In this document: positions 6,587-60,300 of the stretch, in pieces
Layout of the letters: every line of letters starts with the position of its first letter
How positions within the stretch are numbered: the stretch's first letter is position 1
Origin: Opitutaceae bacterium
GTDB lineage: Bacteria > Verrucomicrobiota > Verrucomicrobiia > Opitutales > Opitutaceae
Length of the DNA stretch: 64,000 bases
Reading direction: 5' to 3'
Assembly: GCA_030693515.1 (NCBI GenBank)
Contig: JAUYAK010000056.1
Span: 1 to 64,000 of the forward strand
Notes under the pieces: model-generated
Seen by the model: only the letters and a program-made list of their open reading frames with translations
What the model was told of the DNA's origin: nothing
Databases searched by the model: none
Program-made: the position numbers and the translations under genes

Positions 6587-6597
6587 GGGGGTTACAG

Positions 6598-6614
6598 CTC
6601 CGGCGAGGCCGGAG
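6598..6614. promoter_or_regulatory. Hairpin in leader of ECF sigma gene
   Basis: CTCCGGC-GAG-GCCGGAG forms a perfect 7-bp stem whose near edge is 12 bases upstream of the sigma start codon. It could occlude ribosome access or be a repeat fragment. The tract T6 at about 6625 would make it a weak terminator only for plus-strand transcription. Confidence 0.35.
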
Positions 6615-6746
6615 GGTGCGGGAGTTTTTTATCGGAACCGGTGCGAAGCGTGTCGAGGGGCTTTCCGGGGGAAACCGGCCGCGAAAACTTTTTTAAAAAC
6701 GGACCAGGTCCAAATCCCGCCCGCTGCGTCTAGGGGCAGGCGCGCT

Positions 6747-8180
<1,434 letters not shown>

Positions 8181-39682: not shown

Positions 39683-39875
39683 CGGCGGTGGGCGGCTGCG
39701 CCGCGGATGCGCGGGCCGGACGCGCCGCGCCGCTCGCTCAGCCGGCGCGGAGATGAATGAGTCGCGGTCATGGCAACCAGAATACCAAGGCGCGGCGCAC
39801 CGCGCCATTGGGCAGGCGGTGGCATGCGCCTAAGCGCCCAGGGAGGGCGCGCTCGGCGAAGCCGCGGGATGGGAT

Positions 39876-40658: not shown

Positions 40659-42505
40659 GGTTTCCTTTCTCGAGGATCCGCCGCGGGAGCGGTTCCGCTG
40701 GTTCCGCGCGCGGCGCGCGCCACGGTGCAGGTGACGAGCACGCCGGCGCCTTCAGGGGCATTCTCGGCCGTGAAGCGGCCGCCAATCAATTGCGCGCGGT
40801 GCCTCATCGTTTGCAGGCCCAGCCCTCCGCTCGCCGGGGGCTGCTGCGGCCAGCCCGTGCCGTGGTCCCGCACCGAAATCTCCAGGATGTGTGCGGTGGC
40901 GGCGAGATGGATGTCGATGCGCGAGGTGCCGCTGTGCTTGAGGGCGTTGTTCACGGCTTCCTGCGCGATGCGATAGAGGTGCGTGGCCAGGGTCGGGTCG
41001 TCGAGCAGCACGGCAGAGTCGGTGTCGAAGCGGCACTCGATGCGGCCATCCCGCGTGATGCGGTCGGCGAGGAGTTGCAGCGCGGACATCAGGCCATCGG
41101 GCTCAGGGGGCACCGGGTAAAGGCCGCGCGAGATTTCGCGGACATCCGCCAGCGCTTGGTCGATGAGCGTGTAGATTTGGGCGGCGCGGTCCGCCTCCGC
41201 CGCCCCGCGGGCCTGCAGGTCACGCTGGAGCAGGTTGCCGAGGAAGAGCGCCCCGCCCAGCTCATGGCCCAGGCCGTCGTGCAGGTCGCGCGCGATGCGG
41301 CCGCGTTCCTGTTCGGCGGTGGAGGTGACGGCGGCTTCGAGCCGCTTGCGCTCGGTGAGATCGCGCACGAGGCCGGTAAAGATGCGCCGGTCGCCGGCCT
41401 TGACCTCGCTGATCGCGAGGGCGAGGGGAAACACCGTGCCGTCCTTGCGCTGGCCGGTGACCTCGCGGCCGATGCCGATGATTTTGGCCTGACCGGTCGC
41501 GCAATAGCGGGCGATGTAGCCGTCGTGCTGCTCACGGTGGGGCGAGGGCATGAGCAGGCTGACGTTGCGGCCGATGACCTCGCTGGCGTGGTAGCCAAAC
41601 ATCCGCTCGGCCGCCGCGTTCATCGAGTCCACCAAGCCGCGCTCGTTGATGGTCAGGATGCCATCGACGGCGGTCTCGACCACGGCGTGGAGCCGCTGCT
41701 TCTGCTCGGTCAATTCCGAGGTGCGCTCCGCCACGCGGGTTTCTAGCGTGGCGTTGGCCTCGTGGAGGCGCGCTTCCGCGCGATGGCGCCGCCGGTTCTC
41801 CCGCACCAAGCCCGCCGCAACCAAGCCGAGGAATCCGAGCGCGATGATCCCGCCTCCCAGCACGATGAGCCGCATCTGGCGGTCCTGGCCGATCGCCTCC
41901 GCCTCCTGCGCGGCCAGGAGGCGGTGCTCCTCGGTCAGCAACTCGCCGAATTCCTGGCGCAGCGCCTCCTGTCCGCGCCGGACTTGCAGATGGCGCTCCG
42001 GGGCGCCGGCGGCGAGATCGCCTTGCCGGCGGAAGTCGACGGCTTCGCCGATCGAGCGCAGCTGTTCGCGCATGAGCCGCTCCACACGCGCGAACCGCTC
42101 TTTCACGCGCGGGTGTTGAATCTGGCTGCCCGCGGCGAGCACCCGTGAGTCAAGGTTTCCGGTCGCGGCATCCATCACCTCGAGAAAATACCCATCCCCC
42201 GTGAGCACAAATCCCCGCATGGCCAAAGCCGCGTCAGACAGCCGGGACTGCAACTCCAGTTGTTGCTCGACGAGCTGCTGGGCATGCCGGTTTTGCAGGC
42301 GCAACTCCGCCGCCCGGGTGTAGCTCCGATACTGCACTGCAAAGCACGCGACCACGGGCAGGATGGACAGCAGGCAAAGTGTGACCAGCGAGAGCGAGAA
42401 TCTTTCCTTTCGCGGCGCTGGGCGGGGCGCGGTGCTGGGCGTTGGCGTTGCGGTGGGAATACCGCCGCATGAGAGAAATGTTTCCGCGCCCTGTCCATGC
42501 AGCAT
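40655..42505 (-). CDS. Sensor histidine kinase with CHASE3 and FixL-like haem PAS
   Basis: The 616-residue product has a membrane span (about 37-58), a CHASE3-like periplasmic helical domain (about 62-210), a second span (about 211-234), a coiled coil, a PAS domain (about 275-385), a HisKA_3 dimer domain with phospho-acceptor His409 (ARDLHDGLGHE) and a HATPase. The PAS segment follows rhizobial FixL closely, keeping equivalents of the haem ligand His200 (His327 in EQHDGY), Arg206 (Arg333) and Arg220 (Arg347 in IGIGREVTG), with the 6- and 20-residue spacings intact. It is probably an oxygen (or NO/CO) sensor that phosphorylates the NarL-type regulator encoded next. A start at 42586 would add 27 residues; 42505 is preferred, with moderate certainty. 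Confidence 0.92.
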   Translation of the reverse strand: MLHGQGAETFLSCGGIPTATPTPSTAPRPAPRKERFSLSLVTLCLLSILPVVACFAVQYRSYTRAAELRLQNRHAQQLVEQQLELQSRLSDAALAMRGFVLTGDGYFLEVMDAATGNLDSRVLAAGSQIQHPRVKERFARVERLMREQLRSIGEAVDFRRQGDLAAGAPERHLQVRRGQEALRQEFGELLTEEHRLLAAQEAEAIGQDRQMRLIVLGGGIIALGFLGLVAAGLVRENRRRHRAEARLHEANATLETRVAERTSELTEQKQRLHAVVETAVDGILTINERGLVDSMNAAAERMFGYHASEVIGRNVSLLMPSPHREQHDGYIARYCATGQAKIIGIGREVTGQRKDGTVFPLALAISEVKAGDRRIFTGLVRDLTERKRLEAAVTSTAEQERGRIARDLHDGLGHELGGALFLGNLLQRDLQARGAAEADRAAQIYTLIDQALADVREISRGLYPVPPEPDGLMSALQLLADRITRDGRIECRFDTDSAVLLDDPTLATHLYRIAQEAVNNALKHSGTSRIDIHLAATAHILEISVRDHGTGWPQQPPASGGLGLQTMRHRAQLIGGRFTAENAPEGAGVLVTCTVARAARGTSGTAPAADPRERKP

Positions 42506-43314: not shown

Positions 43315-43340
43315 TGTAACTTTCCTCAGGTTTGCGGCTC
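43315..43340 (+). promoter_or_regulatory. ECF-type promoter before usp gene 43437 (TGTAAC-N15-GGCTC)
   Basis: TGTAAC (43315-43320), 15 bases, GGCTC (43336-43340). The same hexamer, the same spacing and the same pentamer occur at 50920-50945 and 56706-56731. A TGATC-G-GATCA palindrome lies 19 bases upstream (43286-43296). Confidence 0.65.
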
Positions 43341-43436
43341 ACCAAGACGGGGCCTTCTGCGCTCGCGCAACTCGACGTCCCGAAATCCATCCGTATATTT
43401 TCCCCGTCGTTCACACCGTTCGGCTCCACGTCCAAA

Positions 43437-44807
43437 ATGAAATCAGCAAAAACCCATCATCCTGCGGCCAAATCTGCCGGCGTGCTCTGCGGCACGGATT
43501 TTTCCCCCAACGCCAGGCCCGCGGCCAACATCGCCGCCGGGCTGGCCCAGCGCCTGCAAACCACGCTGGAGCTCGTCCACGTGAGCGCCGCTCCGAAGCA
43601 CCCAACCGCAAGCAAGGATCTGCATGCCGAGGCGGAGCGGCTCAGGCGGCAAGGGGCGGCGGTCGAGGAAGTGGTGTTGAGCGGCGCCGCCGACGAAGCG
43701 ATCGTCAAGCGGGTGCAGGCCGGGTCGCATCGGCTCGTGGTGGTCTCGTCGCTGGGCCAGCGGGCCGCCGTGCGGTGGCTGCTGGGGAGCGTGTCGGAGC
43801 GGACGGCGGAACGCTCCCCGTGCACCACTCTGGTGGTGCGGAAGGCCGCGCCCCTCGAAGCGTGGTTGCGCGGCGAGCGTCCGCTGAAGGTGTTTGTCGC
43901 GTTCAACTTTACCGCCACCTCCGAAGGCGCGCTGCGCTGGGTGAAGGAGCTGCAGGCCATCGGGCCGTGCGACGTGGTCGTGGGATATGTGGATTGGCCG
44001 CCCGAGCAGCGGTCGCGCCTGGGCGGCGCGGAACCGTTGCCGCTGGAGGGCAACCTCCCCGCAGTCCAGGGGGTTTTGGAACGCGATCTGAAGGCGCGGG
44101 TGACTGAATTGCTCGGCGAAGGCCCCTGCCGCACGCGCGTCGAGGGCAACTGGGGCCGGCCCGACGCCCGTCTGGCGGCGATGGCCCTCGAGGAGCAGGC
44201 CGACCTCATGGTGGTCGGATCGCACCAGTATCGCGGCTTCGAGCGGATGTGGCACACCTCGGTGTCGCGCGGCTTGCTCCACAGCGCGCCGATGAGCGTG
44301 GCGGTGATCCCGCTTTCCACCCGCGAGAAACGCGCTGCCGGCATGGCTCCGCCGGTGCGGCGCGTGCTGGCGGCGACCGATTTTTCAGACTTGGGCAACC
44401 AAGCGATCGCGCACGCCTACTCGCTGGTGCGGGGCGGCGGCACCGTCCGGCTCGTGCATGCGATGCATCCTCATGAATTGCCGCGGGGCCAGTATCTGCA
44501 AGGCCGCGCCGATCGCAGTTTCGAGACGCGACATGCCAAGCACGTCAAGATTGCGGGGATAAAGCTGCGCGCCCTGGTCCCGGTGGAAGCAGCCGCCCTC
44601 GGCATCGTCACGGAGGTCGAAGTCATCGAGCATCGCGAAGCCGGCATCGGCATCGTGCAGGCGGCGGAACGATTTGGAGCCGATGTCATCTGCCTCGGAT
44701 CGCACGGGCATTCGGGTTGGTCGGCGGGGATTATGGGCTCCATCACCCAGCAGGTGATTTCCACCAGTCGTCGCCCCCTGCTCGTCGTTCAACCGCCGGT
44801 GAAGTAA
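43437..44807 (+). CDS. Universal stress protein, triple-domain
   Basis: The 456-residue product contains three Usp-like modules: about 12-135 (GVLCGTDFSPNARPAAN), about 148-295 (KVFVAFNFTATSEGALRW; GSHQYRGFERMWHTSVSRG) and about 305-455 (RVLAATDFSDLGNQAIAHA; GSHGHSGWSAGIMGS). The last module carries the ATP-binding pattern GxxG-x9-GS, so it probably binds nucleotide. Usp proteins support survival under starvation, hypoxia or other stress. A paralogue with the same three-module layout is at 50989-52314, and both share an exactly spaced promoter motif. Confidence 0.9.
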   Translation: MKSAKTHHPAAKSAGVLCGTDFSPNARPAANIAAGLAQRLQTTLELVHVSAAPKHPTASKDLHAEAERLRRQGAAVEEVVLSGAADEAIVKRVQAGSHRLVVVSSLGQRAAVRWLLGSVSERTAERSPCTTLVVRKAAPLEAWLRGERPLKVFVAFNFTATSEGALRWVKELQAIGPCDVVVGYVDWPPEQRSRLGGAEPLPLEGNLPAVQGVLERDLKARVTELLGEGPCRTRVEGNWGRPDARLAAMALEEQADLMVVGSHQYRGFERMWHTSVSRGLLHSAPMSVAVIPLSTREKRAAGMAPPVRRVLAATDFSDLGNQAIAHAYSLVRGGGTVRLVHAMHPHELPRGQYLQGRADRSFETRHAKHVKIAGIKLRALVPVEAAALGIVTEVEVIEHREAGIGIVQAAERFGADVICLGSHGHSGWSAGIMGSITQQVISTSRRPLLVVQPPVK

Positions 44808-44827
44808 AGATCCTCGGGGCAAGCCGC

Positions 44828-44842
44828 GGGGCCTTTGGCCCC
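44828..44842 (+). terminator. GC-rich hairpin after usp gene
   Basis: GGGGCC-TTT-GGCCCC is a perfect 6-bp stem 20 bases past the usp stop. No T run follows, so termination is uncertain. The rest of 44808-45045 shows no gene. Confidence 0.4.
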
Positions 44843-45045
44843 ACCACCCATCATGTCGTCGCCTCGTTTTCCGATTCCGATCGCCGCGAGCCTGAGAGAA
44901 TGCACGAACCACCCCTCGCTCACGCTCGCGGCTATACCCACCCAGCCGCGGCGAGCTTCGGCGGATCGGTGGACCCGGCTGAAAGACTGATGCAGCGGGA
45001 AGCCGCGCGATCCGTTTCGCCGCCTCCGCCTGCGCTGCCACCACC

Positions 45046-46719
45046 ATGACCTGGCCACTCACATTAAATGCAGCGGGCGGGCTGGCGTTGTTCCTTCTCG
45101 CGATGCTGATGATGACCGAAGGCCTGAAGACCTTCGCCGGCGGCGCGTTGAAGCAGTTGCTCGGGCAGTGGACCTCCACTCCCTTGCGCGGCGTATTCTC
45201 CGGCATGCTCGTCACCGGGGTGGTGCAATCATCAAGCGCGGTGACGATCGCCACCATCGGTTTCGTCAATGCCGGCGTGCTCACGCTCAGGCAGTCGCTC
45301 GGTGTGATCTTCGGCACCAACGTCGGCACGACCATGACGGGCTGGCTGGTCAGCGTGGTCGGCTTCGGCTTCAAGATCGAGACGTTCGCCCTGCCGATCC
45401 TCGCCCTGGGCGTGGCGCTGCGCTTGCTGGCTCCCGGCAAGCGGCCGCAGGGGCTCGGCCAGGCCCTGGCCGGCTTCGGCTTGTTTTTCCTCGGTCTGGG
45501 GATCCTCAAGGAGGCGTTCGGAAGCCTGGCCGCGACCTACGGCACGTCCTTGGCCGGGGCCGGAGGCGGAAACTGGCCGGCCTTCCTGCTGGTGGGCTTC
45601 GTCGCCACCCTGCTCACGCAATCGTCGAGCGCAGCGATTGCCATCATCCTGACCGCGGCGGCAGGAGGCATGGTCGGCCTCGCAGGGGCGGCGGCAGCCG
45701 TCATCGGCGCCAACCTCGGCACCACCTCGACGGCCGCGCTCGCCGTGCTCAAGGCCACGCCCAGCGCCAAGCGGCTCGCGCTGGGCCACATCGCCTTCAA
45801 TGCGATCACCGGCGTCGTGGCGCTGCTGCTGTTGCCCGTCCTGCTGGAGTTGGTCGGCTGGTTGGGCCACACGCTCGGCGCGGAGGACCGGCCGGCGGTC
45901 CTGTTGGCGCTCTTCCACACCGTTTTCAACGTGCTCGGCGTGGCGCTCATCCTCCCGTTCGCCAACCGGCTGGCCACGCTGCTCGAACAGTTGTTCCATA
46001 GCGCGGAGGAAGATCTGGGGCGGCCGCAGCACCTGGATGCCACCCTGGTCTCCACCCCTGAACTCGCGCTCCCGGCCCTGCGCGCCGAGCTCCTTCGCCT
46101 GTGCTCGCAGGTAAACGCGATCGTGAAGCGGGCGATTTCGCGCGACGACACGAGGCCGCGCGACGTGCAAACCCAGTCTGCGGCGATGCTCAGTCTCGGC
46201 ACTGCCATTGCCAACTTCGTGGCCAAACTGCGCACCGAAAGCATGCCGCTCGATGTCGTGGACGAACTGGCGAGGGCGCTGCGGACCGGGCGCTACTTGA
46301 ACGAAGCGGCACGCCTCGCCCCGAACGCCAACGCCCTGCGGCTCGCCGCCCGCAACCTCGCCGATGCCGGCCTGCAAGCCGCCTTGGATCACACGCTGGC
46401 GGCGATCGACCGGTGCGTCGCGCTGGCCGAGCGCACGCCGGCAGCGGCCGGGAGCGACACCGAACGCACGGCCGCCTTGGATCGATTTCAGCATGCCTAC
46501 CAGCAGACCAAGGCCGCGGTGCTGGACGCGGTCATCGATGGCCGCCTCTCCTTGGAAGCCACCGATGGATTGCTCGATGACCTGAGCGCCACCCGGCGCC
46601 TGGTGGAGCAACTGGTGAAAGCCGACCGTCTGCTGCGCAGTCCCGGCCGGGCCAGCGCCATCGAGGAGGAAAGCGGCTGGGAGCAACCACCCGCGGGCGA
46701 GACGCGCGCCGACACGTGA
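45046..46719 (+). CDS. Na/Pi cotransporter family protein
   Basis: The 557-residue product has two Na/Pi-cotransporter repeats with the duplicated QSSSA motif (61-65 and 192-196) and about eight or nine hydrophobic spans in the first 310 residues. A PhoU-like helical cytoplasmic domain (about 330-540) follows. It should import phosphate with sodium or export it. It precedes a P-type ATPase by 22 bases, so the two are likely co-transcribed. Na+ coupling fits the Na+/H+ antiporter gene two positions downstream. Confidence 0.93.
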   Translation: MTWPLTLNAAGGLALFLLAMLMMTEGLKTFAGGALKQLLGQWTSTPLRGVFSGMLVTGVVQSSSAVTIATIGFVNAGVLTLRQSLGVIFGTNVGTTMTGWLVSVVGFGFKIETFALPILALGVALRLLAPGKRPQGLGQALAGFGLFFLGLGILKEAFGSLAATYGTSLAGAGGGNWPAFLLVGFVATLLTQSSSAAIAIILTAAAGGMVGLAGAAAAVIGANLGTTSTAALAVLKATPSAKRLALGHIAFNAITGVVALLLLPVLLELVGWLGHTLGAEDRPAVLLALFHTVFNVLGVALILPFANRLATLLEQLFHSAEEDLGRPQHLDATLVSTPELALPALRAELLRLCSQVNAIVKRAISRDDTRPRDVQTQSAAMLSLGTAIANFVAKLRTESMPLDVVDELARALRTGRYLNEAARLAPNANALRLAARNLADAGLQAALDHTLAAIDRCVALAERTPAAAGSDTERTAALDRFQHAYQQTKAAVLDAVIDGRLSLEATDGLLDDLSATRRLVEQLVKADRLLRSPGRASAIEEESGWEQPPAGETRADT

Positions 46720-46741
46720 ATTTTCGCCACCGACTCTTTCC

Positions 46742-49468
<2,727 letters not shown>

Positions 49469-49506
49469 CGTCCGACCCCGGTCTAAACGGCCCCGTCCGC
49501 TGAACC

Positions 49507-50775
49507 ATGAAAGCCATCGAACTACTCGCCACGGTCCTCTTCGGGCTGGCCGTGTTGCACACCTTCGCGGTCAAGCGCTTCGCCCATTGGGCGCACCGGC
49601 GCCCGCCGGGCTCCGTGAGCGAGAACCTGCTGCACTTTCTGGCGGAGACCGAGGTCGTGTTTGGCCTGTGGGCCGCGGCGCTTTTTCTCGGGATTGCCGT
49701 CTGGAGCGGCTCCCTGCAGGCGGCCGTTAGCCACATCGAGGGCCTCAACTTCAACGAGCCGAAATTCGTCCTCGTCATCATGGTCGTTGCGGCCACGCGT
49801 CCGGTCCTGAATCTCGCCGAGGCGTTTATCGCAAGCGCCGCCCGCCTCATTCCGGCCCGCGAAGGCGTGGCCTTTTATATCGCGGCCCTGTTCCTCGGTC
49901 CGCTGATCGGATCGTTTATCACGGAACCGGCGGCGATGACCTTGCTAGCGCTGCTGCTCAAGCGCCGCTACTTCGACCAAGGCATGAGCCAGCGGTTCGC
50001 CTACGCCACGCTCGGACTCCTGTTTGTCAACGTCTCGGTCGGCGGCACGCTGACGCATTTCGCCGCGCCGCCAGTGCTGATGGTCGCGGCCACATGGAAT
50101 TGGGATCTGGGCTTCATGCTCGAGCATTTCGGCTGGCGAGCGACCGCCACCTGCGCGATTTCGACCGCACTGGTCGCGGGGATACATTGGAAGGAGCTCA
50201 ACGGATTGAAAGTGGCGCAGTCCGCCCCAAGCCAGACTCCGGTTTGGCTGACGGTCGCGCACCTGATGTTCCTCGCGCTCATCGTCGTCTTCGCCCACAC
50301 GCCGGATGTGTTCTTCGGGGTCTTCATGCTGTTCCTCGGCCTGGTGACCGCCACGCCGGCGCACCAGGATTCTCTCAAGCTTCGCGAAGGCTTGCTGGTG
50401 GGATTTTTTCTCGCGGGCCTGGTCACGCTCGGGTCGCTGCAGGCCTACTGGCTCAAGCCGCTCATCGAGCGCCTGGATGGGAACGCCCTGTTCTACGGCG
50501 CGACGGGACTCACCGCCCTCACCGACAACGCCGCGCTCACCTATCTCGGCTCGCTGGTCGAAGGCATCACCGACGAGCAGAAATATGCGCTCGTGGCGGG
50601 CGCCGTGACCGGCGGCGGCCTGACCGTGATCGCCAACGCGCCCAATCCCGCCGGCATCGGAATCCTGCAGGGCGCCAAAGTGTTCGGCGGCGAAGGCATC
50701 AGCCCCCTCGGACTCTTCCTCGGCGCCCTGCCGCCCACGGGCATCGCGGTGGTTTTTTTCTGGTTGCTGCACTAG
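49507..50775 (+). CDS. Putative Na+/H+ antiporter (PF07399 type)
   Basis: The 422-residue integral membrane protein has about eleven hydrophobic spans, conserved NEPKFVLVIMVVAATRPV, ITEPAAMTLLALLL, GLTALTDNAALTYLGSL and VIANAPNPAGIGIL. These blocks match the family annotated as putative Na+/H+ antiporter. It would exchange Na+ for protons. It starts 38 bases after the P-type ATPase and is probably in its operon. Confidence 0.85.
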   Translation: MKAIELLATVLFGLAVLHTFAVKRFAHWAHRRPPGSVSENLLHFLAETEVVFGLWAAALFLGIAVWSGSLQAAVSHIEGLNFNEPKFVLVIMVVAATRPVLNLAEAFIASAARLIPAREGVAFYIAALFLGPLIGSFITEPAAMTLLALLLKRRYFDQGMSQRFAYATLGLLFVNVSVGGTLTHFAAPPVLMVAATWNWDLGFMLEHFGWRATATCAISTALVAGIHWKELNGLKVAQSAPSQTPVWLTVAHLMFLALIVVFAHTPDVFFGVFMLFLGLVTATPAHQDSLKLREGLLVGFFLAGLVTLGSLQAYWLKPLIERLDGNALFYGATGLTALTDNAALTYLGSLVEGITDEQKYALVAGAVTGGGLTVIANAPNPAGIGILQGAKVFGGEGISPLGLFLGALPPTGIAVVFFWLLH

Positions 50776-50919
50776 ATCCGGCTCCGCGGCGGCTCGCCCC
50801 ATCGGCGCCACCGCAGGGGCGGATGCCCGGAGGACCGGAGCGAACGGCATTTGGCCGCGTGGGCCTCGCGTCACCGTGCGCCGCCTCGCGCCGCGGCCGG
50901 CCGCGCCGGCGCGATAGTT

Positions 50920-50945
50920 TGTAACCTTAATCCCGCCGCAGGCTC
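50920..50945 (+). promoter_or_regulatory. ECF-type promoter before usp gene 50989 (TGTAAC-N15-GGCTC)
   Basis: TGTAAC (50920-50925), 15 bases, GGCTC (50941-50945), followed about 44 bases later by the usp ATG. Identical elements and spacing to 43315-43340 and 56706-56731. Confidence 0.65.
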
Positions 50946-50988
50946 TGGACCATGCACGCTTCACGCACCGCAACCACCAGTCCCCACC

Positions 50989-52314
50989 ATGAAGAGCAGC
51001 GAGAACGGACCCATTGTCTGCGGCACGGATTTTTCCGAGAGCGCCGCGCAAGCCGCCACGGTGGCCGATGCCCTCGCGCGCCGTCTCGAAGCGCCGTTCG
51101 TGCTCGCGCGCAGCGCGGATGAACTCGGACAGTTTCCGCAAAACCTGCGCCCCCGCCTGATGGACGATGATCGCCCGCGCCTGGCGGAGCAGGCGGAGCG
51201 GCTGCGCAGCCTCGGCCTGAAGTTCGAAGTGAAATTACTGCACGGCGAGCCGGACGAGGGGATCGTGCAGTTCGCCGCCCGGTCGTCCGCGCGCCTCGTG
51301 GTGGTGGGAGCTTCCGGCACGGGTTCGGTCTGGGGCGGGCGCTGGGTGCTGGGCAGCACGGCGGAGCTCATCGCCGAAACCTCGAGTGTGCCGACCCTCG
51401 TCGTGCGCTCAACCGAGCCGCTGCTCGCATGGGCGCGCGGGGCGCGACCGCTCAAAATTTTCGTGGCGATGGATTTCACGGCGACCTCGGACGCGGCCTT
51501 GCGCTGGCTGGCGGAATGGCGGCGGATCGGGCCGTGCGAAATCACGCTCGGCCACGTCCATCGCTTGCCGGAGGAACGGGCCGAACTCGCGATGTTCGAT
51601 GGCTTGGGCCTGACCGCGCTCACGCCCGCGGCGCGGGCTGACTTGGAGCGCGACCTGCGGGAAAAGGCCGGCCGTTTGCTCGGCCTGGTGCCGGCGCTCC
51701 GCATGGAGCCAAGTTCGGGGCGGGTGGATTCCCATCTGATCCGGCTCGCGACCGAAGCCGAGGCCGATCTGTTCGTGCTCGGCACCCATCAATGGCAGGA
51801 TCTGCCGCGGCTGTGGCAGACCTCGATTTCACGGCGCATCCTGCGCGACGCGCCGATGAGTGTCGCCTGCGTGTCGGTGCCCGTCGCGCCCCGCGGCGCG
51901 GCGGCGGACATCCCGACGTTCAGCCGCGTGCTCGTGGCGACGGATTTCTCCGAGCGCGCCGGACACGCGATTCCGTGCGCCTACGCGGCGCTGCCGCGCG
52001 AGGGCGCCGTGTGCCTGCTCCATGCAGTCAAGCCGGGCGAGCTGGGGCACAAGGAGGAACTCGAAGCACGGTTGCGCGCACTCATCCCCGCCGCCGCCCG
52101 GACGCGCGGCGTGACGACCGAAGTGCGCGTGATCGAGCAGGCCGACGCGGCCACCGCGATCGCTGAAACGGCGGAACGATTTGGCGCGGACCTCGTGTGC
52201 ATCGGCACGCATGGCCGCACCGGTCTGGTGGCGGCCGTGCTCGGCTCCGTCGCGCAGGCGGTGATTGCCCGGAGCCCTTGCCCCGTGCTCGTCGTGCGCC
52301 CGCCTCAGCCGTGA
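50989..52314 (+). CDS. Universal stress protein, triple-domain
   Basis: The 441-residue product has the same layout as the protein at 43437-44807: module 1 (about 8-135, PIVCGTDFSESAAQAATVAD), module 2 (about 148-295, KIFVAMDFTATSDAALRW; GTHQWQDLPRLWQTSISRR) and module 3 (about 305-440, RVLVATDFSERAGHAIPCA; GTHGRTGLVAAVLGSVAQ). Module 3 has the nucleotide-binding GxxG-x9-GS pattern. It heads a plus-strand run with a single-domain Usp, a P-loop protein and lactate genes, and has the conserved promoter. An earlier in-frame ATG at 50851 overlaps the promoter and is rejected. Confidence 0.91.
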   Translation: MKSSENGPIVCGTDFSESAAQAATVADALARRLEAPFVLARSADELGQFPQNLRPRLMDDDRPRLAEQAERLRSLGLKFEVKLLHGEPDEGIVQFAARSSARLVVVGASGTGSVWGGRWVLGSTAELIAETSSVPTLVVRSTEPLLAWARGARPLKIFVAMDFTATSDAALRWLAEWRRIGPCEITLGHVHRLPEERAELAMFDGLGLTALTPAARADLERDLREKAGRLLGLVPALRMEPSSGRVDSHLIRLATEAEADLFVLGTHQWQDLPRLWQTSISRRILRDAPMSVACVSVPVAPRGAAADIPTFSRVLVATDFSERAGHAIPCAYAALPREGAVCLLHAVKPGELGHKEELEARLRALIPAAARTRGVTTEVRVIEQADAATAIAETAERFGADLVCIGTHGRTGLVAAVLGSVAQAVIARSPCPVLVVRPPQP

Positions 52315-52345
52315 TGGGCGCGCAAACTCAACCGCTTCAACTCCC

Positions 52346-52885
52346 ATGAAACGTCCCAAAGTCGCCCAACCGAGAGTGCGCACGGCCGCGCCGGCTCCCG
52401 GAGCCATCAGGTTGAAAAGCATCCTCGTGCCGACCGATTTCTCCCCCGCATCGAACGTCGCCCTCCAGTATGCGGCCGCGCTCGCGGCGCCTTTCGCCGC
52501 GACGATCACGTTGCTGCACATCGCCGAGGTCGGCTCGATGGGCTATGAGCACGGGGCGAAGGATTTCCCCCGGATGGAATCGTTTCTCCGCCTCGCGGCG
52601 GAAAAACAGATCGCCGACTGCGTTCCGCCCGGCCGCGCGGTCGAGTTCAAGATTGGTCGCGGCTGGCCGTTTGGCGGCGAGCGCGCCGACCGCGAGATTG
52701 TCAGGATGGCGCTGCGGCAACGCGCGGACTTGATCGTGATCGCGACGCATGGGCAGACGGGCCTGGACCGGCTCATCCTGGGCAGCACCGCCGAACGCGT
52801 CGTCCGCCACGCCCCTTGCCCGGTCCTGGTCGCGCGCGCGGCGGCGCATGCGGCCGTCAAGACCAAGCCGCGTCGCCGCCAGTAA
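52346..52885 (+). CDS. Universal stress protein, single-domain
   Basis: The 179-residue product has a basic 22-residue N-terminal extension and one Usp domain: KSILVPTDFSPASNVALQYA, and the ATP-binding loop THGQTGLDRLILGSTAERV (Gx2Gx9GS). The C-terminus is Lys/Arg-rich. It lies 31 bases after the triple-domain Usp on the same strand and probably shares its transcript from the promoter at 50920. Confidence 0.93.
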   Translation: MKRPKVAQPRVRTAAPAPGAIRLKSILVPTDFSPASNVALQYAAALAAPFAATITLLHIAEVGSMGYEHGAKDFPRMESFLRLAAEKQIADCVPPGRAVEFKIGRGWPFGGERADREIVRMALRQRADLIVIATHGQTGLDRLILGSTAERVVRHAPCPVLVARAAAHAAVKTKPRRRQ

Positions 52886-52954
52886 TCTCGCCCTCTCTCA
52901 TCGGACTCCCGCGAAACTCGCACGCAACGGTTCCGGCCACTCGCCCCTCCGCTC

Positions 52955-53677
52955 ATGCCCCTCGTCCCGAAGAAACCCCAATCCGCCCGCCCGCTGCTGG
53001 ACGGATCGAACCGCGCCCGCCTCAAACGGCGGTTGACCAGGCAGGGAAACGAACGCTGCCGCATCGTGCTCACGGGCGGCCCGGGCGGCGGAAAAACCAC
53101 GGCGGCGGACCTCTTCCGCCGGGAGATTGGCGAGCGCGTGGTCATCGTGCCCGAGGCCGCCACGCTGGTCTTTTCCGGGGGATTTCCCAGGAGCACCGAG
53201 GCTTCGGCCATCAGGGCGTCGCAGCACGCCATCTTTCATGTGCAGAGCAATCTGGAGGACGTGCAATCCGCGCGCTACCCCGGGCGCATCCTGCTCTGCG
53301 ACCGCGGCACGGTGGATGGCGCGGCCTACTGGCCCGGCGCCGAGGAGCAGTTCTTCACCGCGCTGGGCACGACGCTGGAGCAGGAACTCGCGCGCTACGA
53401 CGGCGTGATCTTTTTTGAAAGCGCGGCGGTCGGCGGCATGGGCATCGAGGGCGGCAACCCGGTGCGCACCGAGACGCTGCAGCAAGCGGTCGCCCTCGAC
53501 GCGAAGCTCCGCCAACTATGGTCACATCATCCGCGCTTCGTGCTGGTGCGGCACAACGCTTCGTTCTTCAAAAAAATCAGCTTCGGCCTGGCCGAGCTGG
53601 ACGCGATGGTCGCCGAGCTCGCCGCCCGGCGCAGCGACCCGCCCGAGGCGAACTTCGGCAAACCGCGCAAGTCGTGA
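52955..53677 (+). CDS. P-loop ATP-binding protein (AAA_28-like)
   Basis: The 240-residue product has a Walker A motif TGGPGGGKTT (40-49), Walker B-like ILLCDRGTVDGAAYW and the pattern EAATLVFSGGFPRS, as in the AAA_28 ATPase family that resembles nucleotide kinases. It probably phosphorylates a small molecule or acts as an ATP-dependent switch; the substrate is unknown. It follows two Usp genes and precedes the lactate genes. The 254 bases after it hold an inverted repeat but no gene. Confidence 0.82.
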   Translation: MPLVPKKPQSARPLLDGSNRARLKRRLTRQGNERCRIVLTGGPGGGKTTAADLFRREIGERVVIVPEAATLVFSGGFPRSTEASAIRASQHAIFHVQSNLEDVQSARYPGRILLCDRGTVDGAAYWPGAEEQFFTALGTTLEQELARYDGVIFFESAAVGGMGIEGGNPVRTETLQQAVALDAKLRQLWSHHPRFVLVRHNASFFKKISFGLAELDAMVAELAARRSDPPEANFGKPRKS

Positions 53678-53782
53678 ATCCCCCATGCGCGGCCCGCCTC
53701 CCAGCTTCGATCCACGCCTCGGATTGGGCTATGCCCTCCTCGTGGGCTGTCGCGCAACGTTGCGCGCCGGTGGGCCAGAGAG

Positions 53783-53829
53783 GGCGATCAGGCACGCGCG
53801 CCTGCGGCAGCCGGGCGGGCCTGATCGCC
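53783..53829. promoter_or_regulatory. Inverted repeat in lactate permease leader
   Basis: GGCGATCAGGC (53783-53793) and GCCTGATCGCC (53819-53829) are perfect reverse complements. Further GCCTGAT half-sites lie within the next 70 bases. It could be an operator for a lactate-responsive regulator or an mRNA stem; no regulator is identified. Confidence 0.4.
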
Positions 53830-53931
53830 ATGCTGGCGGGATTGGTCCGCCGCCTGATCGGTGGCAGGTCGGCCGCGCTTGCGGGCCTGATTAATATTCA
53901 GCTAACCGTCCGGCAGGCCCGGGCCTGAACG

Positions 53932-55527
53932 ATGCCTTTGGGTGATCTCATCTGCGCGGCCGCACCGATTCTGCTCCTCATCTACTGGATGACGCGGCAG
54001 ACGCCGGTGCCCTCCGCCAAAGCGCTGCCCCTCGCGGCGCTCGTGGCCTACGGCATCCGGCTCGCGTGGTTCGGCACCGACGCCAATCTCGTCAACGCCT
54101 CCGTGGTGGCCGGGCTGCTGGTGGCGCTCACGCCCATCATGATCGTGTGGGGCGCGATTGTCTTCTTCCGCACGATGGAGCACAGCGGCGCGATGGCGAC
54201 CATTCGGCTCTGGCTGAATCATCTCACCCGCAACCGCGTCGCGCAGGTCGTCATCATCGGCTGGTCGTTTCAATTTCTCATCGAGGGAGCCAGCGGCTTC
54301 GGCACGCCGGCCGCGCTCGCCGCCCCGTTGCTGGTCGGGCTCGGGTTTCCGGCGGTGCGCGTCGCGATGGCCTGTCTCATACTCAACAGCGTGCCGGTGT
54401 CGTTCGGCGCCGTGGGCTCGCCGACGTGGTTCGGATTTGGGCAGTTGGGGCTGGGCGCGGAGGAGTTGCATGCGGTGGCGTGGAAGACGGCGCTCATCCA
54501 CAGCGCCGCCGCCATAGTCGTTCCGCTGCTGGCCTTCCGCCTTCTGGTGAGCTGGCCGGAAATCCGGCGCAACCTCGCTTTCATCGCCCTCGCGCTGGCC
54601 GCGAGTGTGGTCCCGATGTTTTTGATCGCACGGGTCGATGATGAATTCCCCGCCGTAGCCGGCGGATTAATCGGGCTGATCATTACGGTGGCGCTCGCCC
54701 GTCGTCGCGTCGGTCTGGCCCATGAGGACGAGCCGGCGGCGGAAGCGGCCGGGGCGGCTCCGTCCGCAGGCGAGGTGATTAAGGCGCTCTTCCCGTTGTG
54801 GGCCGCCGTGATCGTGCTGCTCGCCACCCGGATTCCCCAGTTCGGCTTGCGTGGTCTCCTCACGGCCGCGGCTCCCGCGTGGGATTTCCCTCTCGGCAGC
54901 CTGGGCGGATTTTCCATCAGCCCGGCCTTGGTGCTGAGCCTGCACGGTATCTTCGGCACGGAAACGGATTGGACGCACCAACTCCTCTACGTGCCTTCGC
55001 TGATCCCTTTCATCGCGATTTCGGTCATGGCTTGGTGGCTGCTGGCCGCGCCAGCGGGCACGGCCGGGAAGGTGTGGCGCGAGTCGGCCGCCCGGATGCG
55101 CCATCCCATCCTCGCCCTGCTCGGCGCGCTGGTTTTCGTGCGGCTGCTGATGGTCGGCGGCGAGCAATCGGCCGTGATGCTCATCGGCCACTCCCTGGCC
55201 TCTGTCACCGGCGGCGGGTGGCCCTACCTGGCCGCCTACCTCGGCGCCCTCGGCGCGTTCTTCGCGGGCTCGTGCACGATTTCCAATCTCACGTTCGGCC
55301 CGATTCAAGATTCCATCGCCACGCGGATGGGACTGGATCGGACCACCCTCCTCGCCCTGCAATCGGTCGGCGGAGCGATGGGCAACATGGTCGCCATCCA
55401 CAACATCGTCGCCGTTTGCTCGGTGCTCGGCTTGGTCAACGAGGAGGGGAAAATCATCCGGCAGACGGTGGGCCCCATGCTGCTCTATGGCGTGGTGGCC
55501 GCGATCATGGCCTATGTGCTCTGGTAG
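53932..55527 (+). CDS. lctP: L-lactate permease family transporter
   Basis: The 531-residue membrane protein has about thirteen spans and the LctP family blocks FQFLIEGASGFGTPAALAAP, FGAVGSPTWFGFGQLG and FFAGSCTISNLTFGPIQ. It should move lactate or glycolate with protons across the inner membrane. The 2-hydroxyacid dehydrogenase gene follows 88 bases later, which fits lactate exchange. The family call is strong; whether it imports or exports lactate here is not visible. Confidence 0.92.
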   Translation: MPLGDLICAAAPILLLIYWMTRQTPVPSAKALPLAALVAYGIRLAWFGTDANLVNASVVAGLLVALTPIMIVWGAIVFFRTMEHSGAMATIRLWLNHLTRNRVAQVVIIGWSFQFLIEGASGFGTPAALAAPLLVGLGFPAVRVAMACLILNSVPVSFGAVGSPTWFGFGQLGLGAEELHAVAWKTALIHSAAAIVVPLLAFRLLVSWPEIRRNLAFIALALAASVVPMFLIARVDDEFPAVAGGLIGLIITVALARRRVGLAHEDEPAAEAAGAAPSAGEVIKALFPLWAAVIVLLATRIPQFGLRGLLTAAAPAWDFPLGSLGGFSISPALVLSLHGIFGTETDWTHQLLYVPSLIPFIAISVMAWWLLAAPAGTAGKVWRESAARMRHPILALLGALVFVRLLMVGGEQSAVMLIGHSLASVTGGGWPYLAAYLGALGAFFAGSCTISNLTFGPIQDSIATRMGLDRTTLLALQSVGGAMGNMVAIHNIVAVCSVLGLVNEEGKIIRQTVGPMLLYGVVAAIMAYVLW

Positions 55528-55615
55528 CAGGCCCGGCCTTGGATTTCCCGCGCCAACTCCGGCTTTCATTTAATTCGATCACCTCCACCCACTGTCTCAC
55601 CACCTCCCATCCGTC

Positions 55616-56620
55616 ATGCCCACCCTCACCATCGCCTTCTACGACACCAAGTCCTACGACCGCGACTATTTCGGCCGCGCCACGCAGGGCGCCGATCTTG
55701 TCCTGCGCCATCACGATTTTCGGCTGACCGCCGACACAGCCCGCTCCGCCGAAGGCGCGCAGGCGGTCTGCGTGTTCGTCAACGATCGCCTGGATCGTTC
55801 CTGCCTGACGGCGCTCGCCGCGCTCGGCGTGAAGCTGGTGGCGCTGCGCTGCGCCGGCTTCAATAACGTGGACCGGGCCGCCGCGCTCGAGCTGGGTTTG
55901 GCGATCGTGCGGGTGCCCGCCTACTCGCCCCACGCCGTCGCGGAGCACACGGTGGCGCTGCTGCTGGCGTTGAATCGGAAAATTCACCGCGCCTACAACC
56001 GCGTGCGTGAACAAAACTTCTCCCTCGGCGGGCTGGTCGGCTTTGATCTGCATGGCAAAACCGTCGGCCTCGTGGGCACGGGAAAAATCGGGCGTATCAC
56101 GGCGCAGATCTTCCGGGGCTTCGGCTGCCGGGTCCTCGCCCATGAGCCCGCGCCGTCCGTCGAGTGGGCGGCGGCCCATGGCATCGCCTACACCAGCCTC
56201 GATACGCTGCTGGTCGAGAGCGACATCGTCAGCCTGCATCTGCCGCTCACGCCGCAGACGCATTACCTCCTCAACGAGGCCTCCCTCGCCCGCATGAAGC
56301 CTGGCGCGTATCTGGTAAACACCAGCCGCGGCAAACTCGTCGAGAGCGCGGCTCTGATTAAAGCCCTGAAGTCGGGCCACCTCGGCGGCGTGGCGCTCGA
56401 TGTTTACGAGGAAGAGGAAGGCATCTTCTTCGAGGATCATTCCGGCGAGGTCCTGCAAGACGACGAACTCTCGCGGCTGCTCACCTTCCCGAACGTCCTC
56501 ATCACGGCCCACCAGGCCTTTCTGACGCACGAGGCGCTCAGTGAAATCGCCCGCGTGACGACGGAGAACATCCTGAAACTGCGGTCGGGCGACGCCTTCC
56601 TCGCGGGCACTAATCTGTGA
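55616..56620 (+). CDS. D-lactate dehydrogenase / 2-hydroxyacid dehydrogenase
   Basis: The 334-residue product is a D-2-hydroxyacid dehydrogenase with NAD-binding GLVGTGKIG (about 150-158), catalytic Arg in VNTSRGKLV, Glu in the DVYEEEEGIFFEDHS region and catalytic His in TAHQAFLTHEAL. The DVYEEEEG...F form is typical of fermentative LdhA-type enzymes that reduce pyruvate to D-lactate. Placed after a lactate permease, it points to lactate formation or use, probably at low oxygen. Confidence 0.93.
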   Translation: MPTLTIAFYDTKSYDRDYFGRATQGADLVLRHHDFRLTADTARSAEGAQAVCVFVNDRLDRSCLTALAALGVKLVALRCAGFNNVDRAAALELGLAIVRVPAYSPHAVAEHTVALLLALNRKIHRAYNRVREQNFSLGGLVGFDLHGKTVGLVGTGKIGRITAQIFRGFGCRVLAHEPAPSVEWAAAHGIAYTSLDTLLVESDIVSLHLPLTPQTHYLLNEASLARMKPGAYLVNTSRGKLVESAALIKALKSGHLGGVALDVYEEEEGIFFEDHSGEVLQDDELSRLLTFPNVLITAHQAFLTHEALSEIARVTTENILKLRSGDAFLAGTNL

Positions 56621-56636
56621 GCGCCATACGCAGCAG

Positions 56637-56697
56637 CGATCCTGCAGGCGGGCGGCACTGGGGAGCCGCGAGTGGGCCTGCACCTAAAACAGGATCG
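56637..56697 (+). terminator. Long hairpin after D-lactate dehydrogenase gene
   Basis: CGATCCTG (56637-56644) pairs perfectly with CAGGATCG (56690-56697) around an inner CAGGC/GCCTG pair. No T run follows. It separates the ldh gene from the next promoter. Confidence 0.4.
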
Positions 56698-56705
56698 TGG
56701 ATGAC

Positions 56706-56731
56706 TGTAACCTTTGCCTCTTCGGCGGCTC
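56706..56731 (+). promoter_or_regulatory. ECF-type promoter before anti-sigma-like gene (TGTAAC-N15-GGCTC)
   Basis: TGTAAC (56706-56711), 15 bases, GGCTC (56727-56731), 24 bases before the ATG at 56756. The third member of the set with 43315 and 50920. Confidence 0.65.
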
Positions 56732-56755: not shown

Positions 56756-57034
56756 ATGAAATGCGAAGAACGGTTGCTTCTCCTGGACGAATACTGGGCC
56801 GGGACGATGGCCCACGGGACCTCCGCGGCGATGGAGGCGCACTGGGTCGGCTGCGACTCCCGCCAAGCGGCCTGCGGGGTGATCTGGCAGACCTTCGTCC
56901 GCTGCCGGGCCATCGAACCTTACGAATTGCCGGTGGAGTTTCACGACCGTCTCCATCGCGCCCTGCGCGAGCAGTGGACCATGAAACTGAACCGGCGGGC
57001 TAGCCATCAAAATGTAGCTACGAGCCAACCATGA
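56756..57034 (+). CDS. Small zf-HC2/anti-sigma-like protein
   Basis: The 92-residue product opens like a zinc-binding anti-sigma domain: LLLLDEYWAGTM, then His29-x3-Cys33 (AHWVGC) and Cys40. The classical pattern is H-x3-C-x2-C; here the second Cys is six residues on, so metal binding is uncertain. No membrane span follows. Its promoter matches those of two Usp genes, as expected if an ECF sigma factor drives its own inhibitor. The function is an inference from pattern and promoter; it may equally be a small unrelated protein. The 286 bases after it show no gene. Confidence 0.6.
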   Translation: MKCEERLLLLDEYWAGTMAHGTSAAMEAHWVGCDSRQAACGVIWQTFVRCRAIEPYELPVEFHDRLHRALREQWTMKLNRRASHQNVATSQP

Positions 57035-57320: not shown

Positions 57321-60300
57321 ATGACCACCAAGCGATCCCCTACCCTGAAACCGATTCGCCGCGGGCTATTCTCCCTGCTGCTCGGGGCGGTGGCGCACAG
57401 CGTTTTTGCGGCCCAACCCTATGTCCCGAAGGTCACCGATCCGCTGTTGGATTCATCCCACTGGCAGAAGATCGCCGAACTCGACGGAAAAAACCCGCAG
57501 TGTCTCGTCGAAGGAAAAGACGGTGCGGTGTGGTTTGGTGTAAGTCATGGCCTGATGCGTTACGACGGGATGAAGTGGGCCTCGCATGGAGCCAAGGAGG
57601 GGGCCGTCGATTCCCCCGTCACGGCGCTGTTGAGCTCCAAGGCGGGGCATATCCTTGCGGCCTCCGAGCTGGGTGTCATGAAGTTCGACGGCGCTGCGTG
57701 GACCCAGCTATTCAGGACTCCGGTCGGTTATCCTCTGCAATTCCACACCCTGTTTGAAGCCGCCGACGGCGCCCTCTGGGCCGCGACGGACAAGTGCGTC
57801 GTGAAAATTTCCGTCGATGGAACCGTCATCTTCGCCGAGAGCCAGTTTACCCCGGGAGTGGCGGCGGCTTATCCGGCGCTCCCCGTCATCACGTTGCCCC
57901 GGACACGGCCCACCGATGAGCCGCCCGACCGGCAGGGTCGCGCCGTTTACCAGACCAGCGACGGCACCATCTGGCTGGGGCTTTGCTATGGCGAAGTCAT
58001 CCGGATCGACCCCAAGAAAAATGCCCTCACCGATTCCACGGCCTTTCACCAGTTGACGTCCGCCGAGGGATTCCAGCCCGGCGGGGGCGTCACTTTCCAC
58101 GAAACCCGCGACGGCCGGTTGTGGATCGGCAACATGTTGTCGCAGGTCGGGATGAATCAATACGATCCCGCGACCGGACGCTGCACCTACTTTAGCTTTT
58201 CCGAACTGTTCGGTTCCGACGACATCGTAGCTTCGCTGATCGGCACCGCCGATGGCTCCGTCTGGGCCGGGGGGCTGGCCAAGATCTTCCGGTATCACGA
58301 TGGGGAGTGGCGCATCTATCGCGCCACCGACGTTCCGCTCTCCGCCTCCCGCAATGTGTTGATGGAGTCTCGCGACGGCTATCTCTGGGTGCTCGGCCTC
58401 CGGGATGGCGTCCAAAAAATAGACTATCGCGGGCGTCGCTGGACAAGATTTGAGGGGCTCAACTACCAGTGCGAAACGGCCGATGGCAGCCAATGGTTCA
58501 TCAGCAGCGACAACAGCGTCGTGCGCCATGACGGGAAATCGTGGCTGCGCTACGGCACGGAAGACGGTCTGATTGGCGCCCCGAACGCGCTGATCACCTC
58601 GCGCCGCGGGCTGCTCTGGGCCGCGGGCAGCCACGAAGGCAAAGCCGCCACCGCCTGCCTCGAGGGAGACCGGTGGAGTCTTAAGCTGCATGATCGCGAC
58701 TCTCCGCCCTTCGGTTCCGCGTTGGATTATCGCGCGGTCTTCGAGTCCGCCGACGGATCGATGTGGTTTGCCTGTTACATCAACGCGGGTTTGGGCGGCC
58801 AGTTGCAATACGACCCGGCCCGCGGACCGCCGCACGACGACCGCGCCTGGCGGACCCATCAAAAGCTGCCCGATTTTCGCACTTCGCACGGATTTGCACA
58901 GCTTGCCGACGGAAGACTATTCTCCGCTTCGGCGCACGGCATGATGGAATACGACGGCCAACAATGGCAGCCGTTCCCTGTCCCGGGCGCCCGGCAGTTT
59001 GACGCGGTGGCCCATTCACCCGATGGCACCAGCCTGTGGATCGCCGCGCGTGGCCAAGGCCTGCTGCGCTACGATGGGAAGAACTTCACCAAGTTCGACG
59101 TCAAAGACGGCCTCTCCGCCAACGGCGTGACGGCATTGCTGTGCGAGGACAATGAACGCGTGTGGGCGGCGACCAGCAAAGGCATCAGCCACTTCGATGG
59201 CCGCGAATGGACACAGCAGGTATTCGGCGAAGGGTCCATGACCATGGGCAGCGAGAGCGGCAACTTGAAGCGTTCGCCCGACGGATCCCTCTGGATCAAC
59301 CGGCTCTCGCGGGAGTGGCTGCGGCGGGTGCTTCCGGGCGCGCGGATGACCGACTCGATCACCAAGGATTTCTGGTGCGTGCGCTACCAGCCCGAGCGCG
59401 CGCCCCCCAAAACGGAGTTTACCCTGGCGCTGCCCCGGGTTTCTCAGCCGGGCAACACGGTCGTTTCCTGGCGGGGAATCTCGCCGTGGTGGCATTCCCC
59501 CGAGCGCAGCCTGAGGTATTCGTATCGGCTGGATGGCGGACCGTGGTCCCGTTTCGACCCTGCCACGAGCCACGTCTTCCTGGAGTTGCCACCGGGCCAA
59601 CGTCTGATCGAGGTCCGGGCGCAGGACCGCGATCTCAACATCGAAGCCGTGCCGGCCCGGCTGGCGTTTGAAGTGCTGCCGCCCGTCTGGCAGGAGCCTT
59701 GGTTCATCGGTGTCATTGCTCTCCTGGTCGGAGCCATCGCGACCCAAACCGTCCGCGTCGTGCGCCACAGCCGGCGTCTCCGGCACAACAATCGTCAGCT
59801 CGAAGCAAACAGCCGCCAGCTCCTGGACCAAAAAACCCAGCTCGAAGGTGAAATCACCCAGCGCAAAAAAATGGAGGCCGAGGTGGCGCTGGCGCATCAG
59901 CGGCTGCTGGAGGCCTCGCGCCAGGCCGGCATGGCGGAGGTGGCGGTGAACGTGCTCCACAACGTCGGCAACGCGCTCAACAGCGTAAATGTCTCCGCTT
60001 CCCTGATCGCCGGCACCGTCCAGAAATCGAAGGCCGAGCAATTTTCCAAGGTCACCGCCATGATGCGCGAGCACGAGGCCGACCTCGCCGATTTCCTCAA
60101 GCACGATCCGAAGGGCAAGTTCGTGCCCGGGTTCCTGCAGACGCTCGCCCAAACCGCCCTCAAGGAGCGCGAACAGCTCCTGACTGAGATCGGCGTGCTG
60201 CAGCAACACGTCGGGCAGATCACCGAGATTGTCGCAAAGCAGCAGACGCATGCCGCCGCCGGCCCGATGCTGGAACCCCTCGCCCCGGCGACCCTGATCG

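What the first reader, a model, noticed from the sequence alone, without database searches (positions are those of the whole stretch)
43315..56731. Three promoters with identical TGTAAC-N15-GGCTC architecture define a candidate ECF regulon
Upstream of usp 43437, usp 50989 and the anti-sigma-like gene 56756 the sequence reads TGTAAC, exactly 15 bases, GGCTC (43315, 50920, 56706), with a pyrimidine and TT after TGTAAC in each. Spacers are otherwise unrelated, so these are not repeats. ECF sigma factors recognise such bipartite sites with fixed spacing, and an ECF sigma gene lies at 38517-39290. I found no other match by eye upstream of other genes in the window.
Basis: partly seen in the sequence, partly recalled or inferred. 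Interest (0 to 1): 0.8.

Follow-up and report, generated by a model that had tools for sequence, protein, structure and literature searches.

The report
Sigma factor and its three promoters
Three identical promoter-like signals in this bacterial genome are very probably read by one nearby stress sigma factor, because distant relatives of that sigma factor carry the same signal beside their own genes, including the gene for the sigma factor's inhibitor.

Summary
TGTAAC-N15-GGCTC occurs three times in the window, the only three copies in the 6.65-Mb genome, each upstream of a gene in the right orientation. The interpretation gains independent support. The ECF sigma at 38517-39290 had no match at E<=1e-35 in 249 other family genomes, but 18 orthologs (55-65% identity) were found elsewhere. 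Of these, 13 carry TGTAACYTT-N12-GGCTC with at most one mismatch; in 11 the site lies within 0.9 kb downstream of the ECF gene. In eight loci it stands 12-22 bases before a zinc-finger anti-sigma gene. Window gene 56756 is a 44-46% identical homologue of that anti-sigma. Other ortholog sites precede thioredoxin, YgaP-like and cytochrome genes, suggesting a thiol-redox regulon. In the window the system looks altered: the anti-sigma gene is 17.5 kb from the sigma gene, its product has lost one zinc cysteine, and the other targets are universal stress proteins. Nothing was measured; recognition and signal are inferred. Site 50920 is the weakest.

The parts
38517..39290 (-). ECF sigma factor, 257 aa
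   Evidence: Pfam Sigma70_r2 and Sigma70_r4_2; in one clade with 18 orthologs, support 100/99
39287..39691 (-). lone receiver domain; its stop overlaps the ECF start codon
   Evidence: Pfam Response_reg 3.1e-20; sequence
39924..40658 (-). NarL/LuxR-type response regulator
   Evidence: Pfam Response_reg and GerE
40655..42475 (-). CHASE3-PAS histidine kinase; the start used here is my choice, the true start is unsure
   Evidence: Pfam CHASE3, PAS, HisKA_3, HATPase_c
43315..43340 (+). site 1, TGTAACTTT-N12-GGCTC, putative ECF promoter
   Evidence: matrix score 33.3, rank 1 in window
43437..44807 (+). universal stress protein with three Usp stretches
   Evidence: Pfam Usp 1.2e-56
50920..50945 (+). 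site 2, TGTAACCTT-N12-GGCTC, putative ECF promoter, weakest of the three
   Evidence: matrix score 18.4, rank 3
50989..52314 (+). universal stress protein with three Usp stretches, 45% identical to 43437
   Evidence: Pfam Usp 1.4e-57; identity
52343..52885 (+). single-domain universal stress protein, possibly in the same unit as 50989
   Evidence: Pfam Usp 2.6e-32; co-transcription inferred
56706..56731 (+). site 3, TGTAACCTT-N12-GGCTC, putative ECF promoter
   Evidence: matrix score 33.1, rank 2
56756..57034 (+). soluble anti-sigma factor, 92 aa, zinc motif incomplete (C3, H29, C33 kept; R at 36)
   Evidence: 44-46% identity to anti-sigma factors beside ECF orthologs; alignment A1
57321..60734 (+). 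propeller histidine-kinase-like protein behind the anti-sigma gene, possibly in the same unit
   Evidence: Pfam Reg_prop, HATPase_c; co-transcription inferred

Best explanation
The three sites are promoters of one ECF sigma factor, encoded at 38517-39290. TGTAACYTT is its -35 element and GGCTC its -10 element. The sigma factor is held inactive by the small soluble anti-sigma factor encoded at 56756. When released it transcribes the anti-sigma gene (negative feedback), the usp gene at 43437 and the usp gene at 50989, with whatever follows in the same units. No site precedes the sigma operon, so the sigma gene is not its own target; its expression may be set by the kinase and response regulators encoded upstream of it. 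Shown: the sites, their rarity, their recurrence beside ECF orthologs, the homology of sigma and anti-sigma. Inferred: recognition, sigma/anti-sigma binding, operon extents, the role of the two-component genes and the signal. In the relatives the pair looks like a thiol-redox system; in the window a zinc ligand is lost and the targets differ, so the signal here may not be the same.
For: Three exact sites, none elsewhere in the genome. Sites beside 13 of 18 orthologs, 12 exact copies in 181 kb where 200 shuffles gave none. 3 of 3 ECF genomes against 5 of 384 others; in the order of G400, 3 of 4 against 1 of 13 (p 0.022). Site 12-22 bases before the anti-sigma start in eight loci, 24 bases in the window. 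Window anti-sigma homologous to theirs. A matrix from 16 ortholog-locus sites ranks the window sites 1 to 3.
Against: No transcription data. The matrix sites were found with the window's own pattern, so conservation in those columns is partly by construction. Five of 18 orthologs lack a site with at most one mismatch: two at contig ends, L094 (3 mismatches), G602 (2 mismatches), L096 (none). Five genomes without the ECF have an exact site, and one more in the genus (G025). Usp homologues in the genus lack the site (11 of 11 loci read). Site 50920 scores only 18.4 against 13.8 for the presumed chance site at 3098. The ECF searches scored only the best 6-12 first-look candidates of a genome.
Confidence: 0.85

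Rival explanations
1. The sites are operators of a DNA-binding regulator, for example the NarL-type response regulator at 39924, and not sigma promoters.
For: The regulator gene is near. Two-component genes also lie beside ECF orthologs in L091 and L115.
Against: The sites are bipartite, one-sided, oriented towards the gene and 12-24 bases from the start in front of anti-sigma genes, as promoters are. No homologue of the window's receiver, NarL regulator or kinase was found by tblastn at 1e-4 in 18 ortholog loci; the two-component genes in L091 and L115 are OmpR-type. The site goes with the ECF and its anti-sigma.
Confidence: 0.07
2. The sites are promoters of another ECF sigma factor of this genome, and the resemblance to the ortholog loci is shared ancestry of a promoter code.
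For: The genome has many ECF-like candidates (75 in the first look).
Against: The next best matches in the genus are 38% identical or less and fall outside the clade, whereas the site tracks this ortholog group.
Confidence: 0.05
3. Sites 1 and 3 are real but site 50920 is a chance match or a decayed site.
For: Score 18.4 against 33; it lacks the C before GGCTC (+21) and the T at +10 and +18.
Against: Both boxes and the YTT are exact, the spacing is right, it stands upstream of a usp gene paralogous to 43437, and chance gives 0.01 such sites per window.
Confidence: 0.15
4. All three are chance matches.
For: With two mismatches and no YTT the count equals chance.
Against: Shuffles, whole-genome count and co-occurrence with the ECF.
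Confidence: 0.01

Closest known systems
ECF16 sigma factors and promoters (BcrS of Brucella, EcfF of Bradyrhizobium, RpoE7 of Sinorhizobium)
   Same: -35 TGTAAC; stress-type ECF/anti-sigma pair (passages of PMC8315932, PMC3420878 and PMC6180224)
   Different: -10 is CGAA with N16-17, not GGCTC with N15; the ECF16 anti-sigma (NrsF type) is, from recall, a membrane protein, here a small soluble zf-HC2 type
SigR-RsrA of Streptomyces (redox ECF with zinc anti-sigma)
   Same: Small soluble anti-sigma with ligands spaced as RsrA C11, H37, C41, C44 in the relatives (passages of PMC4960319); thioredoxin genes behind sites, as for SigR from recall; NCBIfam RsrA model hits the L093 anti-sigma, 31.8 bits
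   Different: 31.8 bits is below the cut-off of 62.5, and the window protein has no hit; promoter differs (SigR promoter from recall); the window protein lacks one ligand
ECF26 sigma factors of Sinorhizobium (RpoE1, RpoE4; sulfite response)
   Same: ECF/anti-sigma pair with a sulfur-related regulon (passages of PMC6180224)
   Different: Promoter GGAATA/GT and anti-sigma with a transmembrane domain
NCBIfam NF008888 (PRK11922), RNA polymerase sigma factor
   Same: Best curated model for the window ECF (182 bits) and for the L093 ECF (171.8 bits)
   Different: Both below its cut-off of 204 bits

Membership tests
ECF sigma factor | Sigma region 2 and region 4 domains only | tested here: met
   Pfam Sigma70_r2, Sigma70_r4_2; NCBIfam sigma70-ECF 107.8 bits, cut-off 42.9
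ECF sigma factor | Anti-sigma gene in the same system | tested here: met
   Homologue at 56756, not adjacent; adjacent or near in relatives
ECF sigma factor | Recognises a bipartite promoter in front of its targets | tested here: inconclusive
   Strong co-occurrence, no experiment
Class I zinc anti-sigma (ZAS, RsrA-like) | Hx3Cx2C signature | tested here: not met
   Window protein has H29 and C33 but R at 36; 8 of 8 aligned relatives have it
Class I anti-sigma domain | Homology over the domain | tested here: met
   44-46% BLASTP identity to relatives, 35-41% in the full alignment; profile of A1 matches RsiW chain 5wuq_C at 2.7e-4. Four helices predicted, but at mean pLDDT 59
ECF16 | Promoter (T/C)GTAAC-N17-CGAA | tested here: not met
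   -35 agrees, -10 GGCTC does not
ECF26 | Promoter GGAATA / GT | tested here: not met
One of the about 156 numbered ECF groups | Score to a group model | not testable with these tools
   Group models not available; the classification paper is not held

The most novel reading that the evidence does not exclude
An ECF family of Verrucomicrobiota has its own promoter code, about TGTAACYTTT-N11-CGGCTC. It normally runs a cytoplasmic thiol-redox or reactive-sulfur response (thioredoxin, rhodanese, YgaP-like, cytochromes, RND efflux) through an RsrA-like zinc sensor. In the window's lineage the code has been kept but the circuit rewired: the zinc sensor is damaged and 17.5 kb away, the sigma gene is co-encoded with a NarL-type two-component system not seen at the ortholog loci, and the targets are universal stress proteins.
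Probability: 0.4. Interest if true: 0.62.

Novelty: new member of a known kind. Interest (0 to 1): 0.52.

Why it matters
It ties a promoter sequence to a specific sigma factor in a phylum for which my searches listed no ECF promoter study centred on it (listings only: 15 of 53 papers, among them an ECF41 paper that mentions the phylum and that I did not read; 1; 8). It gives a ready pattern for finding the regulon in uncultured genomes, and a case in which a redox-type sigma circuit may have changed its sensor and targets while keeping its promoter code.

Tried and rejected
Chance: rejected by shuffles, whole-genome count and co-occurrence with the ECF.

A wider regulon in the genome: the 14 two-mismatch sites were read with about 0.8 kb on each side. 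All 14 lie inside open frames of at least 90 aa, but in GC-rich DNA such frames are everywhere, so this is weak evidence that they are not targets.

Window site 3098: taken as chance, antisense in a TonB receptor gene.

Conservation in the genus: exact sites without the YTT rule occur in 8 of 26 other genomes. One of them (G025) has YTT, so my notebook entry that none has it near a usp gene is right only as to the usp genes. None is on a contig with a usp match. Upstream regions (400-500 bases) of 11 usp homologue loci other than the window's two have no site; two fragment loci of the same gene in G007 (L057, L058) were not read. One search read four minus-strand loci in the wrong direction; one search corrected this.

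Two-component coupling as unique to the window: I first held this by eye; on checking, OmpR-type regulators lie beside the ECF in L115 and, with a kinase, 1.8 kb downstream in L091. What is not seen elsewhere is the window's own type: tblastn of its receiver, NarL regulator and kinase at 1e-4 found nothing in 18 ortholog loci, some of them short. The probability of the novel case was lowered from 0.45 to 0.40 for this.

Structure of the anti-sigma: low confidence (mean pLDDT 59), not used further.

Print: searches listed no paper that I recognised as describing this promoter. I saw listings, and passages of five papers. The main ECF classification paper is not held, so absence from print is not shown.
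Full report
OBSERVATION. They are the only exact copies in 64 kb and the only exact copies in the 6.65-Mb genome. With the YTT extension and up to one mismatch the genome holds four, all on the window's contig. The fourth, at 3098, lies antisense in a TonB-dependent receptor gene and is taken as chance. Shuffles give 0.00-0.01 exact sites per window. With two mismatches and no YTT the count equals chance (9 against 9.39), so the tight form is the signal. Spacers of 10-14 and 16-21 give none.

NEIGHBOURS. 38517-39290 is an ECF sigma factor. Upstream on the same strand are a lone receiver whose stop overlaps the ECF start, a NarL-type regulator and a CHASE3-PAS histidine kinase. Sites 1 and 2 precede large universal stress proteins; behind them lie a Na/Pi cotransporter, a cation ATPase and a putative Na+/H+ antiporter (site 1), and a third Usp, an AAA protein, a lactate permease and a 2-hydroxyacid dehydrogenase (site 2). 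Whether these are co-transcribed was not tested. Site 3 precedes a 92-aa gene with no Pfam hit.

ORTHOLOGS. At E<=1e-35 the ECF has no match in 249 other genomes drawn from the family (up to 10 first-look candidates scored per genome). In the genus, with all candidates scored, the best is 38% identical. A scan of GTDB genomes gave 13 orthologs at 55-65% identity; ten record titles name Verrucomicrobiota taxa, three say only 'bacterium'. A 14th hit, L110, is a 68-residue fragment at a contig end and was left out of the ortholog tally; the 22 weaker hits (25-37%) were not used as orthologs. Phylum and order searches added G400, G588, G602, G603 and G605. The 18 and the window ECF form one clade, 100/99, the window on the longest branch of it; its place inside the clade is unsure. 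No call names the window's phylum: that it is Verrucomicrobiota is my inference from the named orthologs and from G400 and G588 being of its phylum.

SITES BESIDE ORTHOLOGS. In the 14 loci (L089-L100, L110, L115; 180,935 bases) there are 12 exact TGTAACYTT-N12-GGCTC sites and 15 with at most one mismatch, all on the strand of the ECF gene and downstream of it; 200 shuffles gave no exact site. Over the 18 orthologs, 13 have a site with at most one mismatch: L089, L090, L091, L093, L097, L098, L099, L100, L115, G400, G588, G603, G605. In 11 of the 13 a site is within 0.9 kb downstream of the ECF match; in L089 and G603 it is 6-7 kb away. The five without are L092 and L095 (contigs end 237 and 22 bases past the match), L094 (3 mismatches), G602 (2 mismatches) and L096 (none near). 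In two searches that each drew 387 genomes of the phylum, taken to be the same set, the exact site is in 3 of 3 genomes with the ECF and 5 of 384 without (Fisher 5.8e-6; without the window's genome 2.8e-4; one search scored up to 6 candidates per genome). In the 17 genomes of G400's order it is in 3 of 4 with and 1 of 13 without (p 0.022); G400 is in both tables. The one without, G382, is also one of the five above. It keeps a 51-aa remnant of the anti-sigma gene upstream of its site, with no ECF match, which fits a decayed member better than chance.

WHAT THE SITES PRECEDE. In eight loci (L090, L091, L093, L097, L098, L099, L100, L115) a site is 12-22 bases before a gene for a protein beginning MKCE or MKCA, 81-86 aa in seven of them; in L115 the frame is broken. 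One, from L099, was run against Pfam and is a zf-HC2 protein (9.6e-10). L094 has the gene with a degenerate site. Other sites precede thioredoxin (G588, G603, G605; Pfam), YgaP-like membrane proteins (L091, L093, L099 by Pfam; in L091 and L093 the start is 225 and 214 bases behind the site; G400 and G382 by likeness), a DUF6132 protein (L097), a di-haem cytochrome c peroxidase (L098), a multihaem cytochrome protein (L100, one mismatch) and a HlyD protein (L089, one mismatch). Rhodaneses (L091, L093, L097, L098, L140) and RND pumps (L141, L144) lie close by. I read this as a thiol or reactive-sulfur response; that is inference from gene content. For three of the five genomes with an exact site and no ECF (G277, G288, G328) no open frame of 60 aa or more began within 260 bases.

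THE WINDOW ANTI-SIGMA. Gene 56756 is 44-46% identical to the L093 and L097 anti-sigma factors by BLASTP and 35-41% to eight of them in the full alignment. Its site stands 24 bases before the start, just beyond the relatives' 12-22. The relatives have C3, H29, C33 and C36 (8 of 8), with the spacing of the RsrA zinc ligands C11, H37, C41 and C44 (PMC4960319, passages). The window keeps the first three and has R at 36; C40 is a possible substitute. So it descends from a ZAS anti-sigma but fails the Hx3Cx2C test. Loss of that motif need not abolish function: zinc and non-zinc members are mixed within anti-sigma groups (PMC7406223, passages).

INDEPENDENT SCORE. A matrix from 16 ortholog-locus sites, with no window sequence in it, ranks the window sites 1, 2 and 3 of all positions (33.3, 33.1, 18.4; next 13.8 at 3098). 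The sites were found with the window's pattern, so those columns are fixed partly by construction; the further conservation at +10 (T, 12 of 16), +18 (T, 12 of 16) and +21 (C, 15 of 16) is not. Site 50920 deviates at all three.

MECHANISM. Sigma released from the anti-sigma reads TGTAACYTT/GGCTC, makes more anti-sigma (feedback) and turns on two usp units. In none of the ortholog loci scanned does a site with at most one mismatch precede the ECF gene itself, so feedback acts through the inhibitor. Input to the sigma gene in the window may be the adjacent two-component genes. tblastn found no homologue of these in 18 ortholog loci at 1e-4, but L115 and L091 have OmpR-type regulators (L091 also a kinase) beside the ECF, so two-component neighbours as such are not special to the window.

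KNOWN RELATIVES. -35 TGTAAC is shared with ECF16 ((T/C)GTAAC-N17-CGAA, PMC8315932, passages; tGTAACc-N16-CGAA, PMC3420878, passages), but the -10 differs. ECF26 uses GGAATA/GT (PMC6180224, passages). The best NCBIfam sigma model stays below its cut-off. Assignment to a numbered ECF group was not possible.

VERDICT. It is a new member of a well-known kind of system, with a promoter code that I did not find in print and a circuit that may have been rewired.

Noticed in passing
window 60787-62133 (-): One protein joins a PTS EIIA-2 domain, a DacZ_P sensor domain and a DisA-type DAC domain: a possible cyclic di-AMP synthase with a PTS-like input.
   Followed up: no
L127 (genome G382), 1307-1441 and 1501-1526: Remnant of the anti-sigma gene upstream of an exact site in a genome in which the ECF was not found: a likely decaying copy of the system.
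   Followed up: partly
L096 and L089: ECF orthologs without an anti-sigma gene directly downstream; L096 has no site with two or fewer mismatches in 20 kb.
   Followed up: no
L140 (G605) 5610-7643 (-): Metallo-beta-lactamase fold plus three rhodanese stretches in one protein near the ECF locus, which hints at persulfide metabolism.
   Followed up: no
L097 8243-9913 (+): Pyridine nucleotide-disulfide oxidoreductase with a C-terminal rhodanese domain directly upstream of the ECF gene.
   Followed up: no
L095 3565-3987: A weak Usp homologue (25% identity, tblastn) about 1.6 kb upstream of the ECF ortholog, the only Usp-like match to 43437 in 18 ortholog loci at 1e-4.
   Followed up: no
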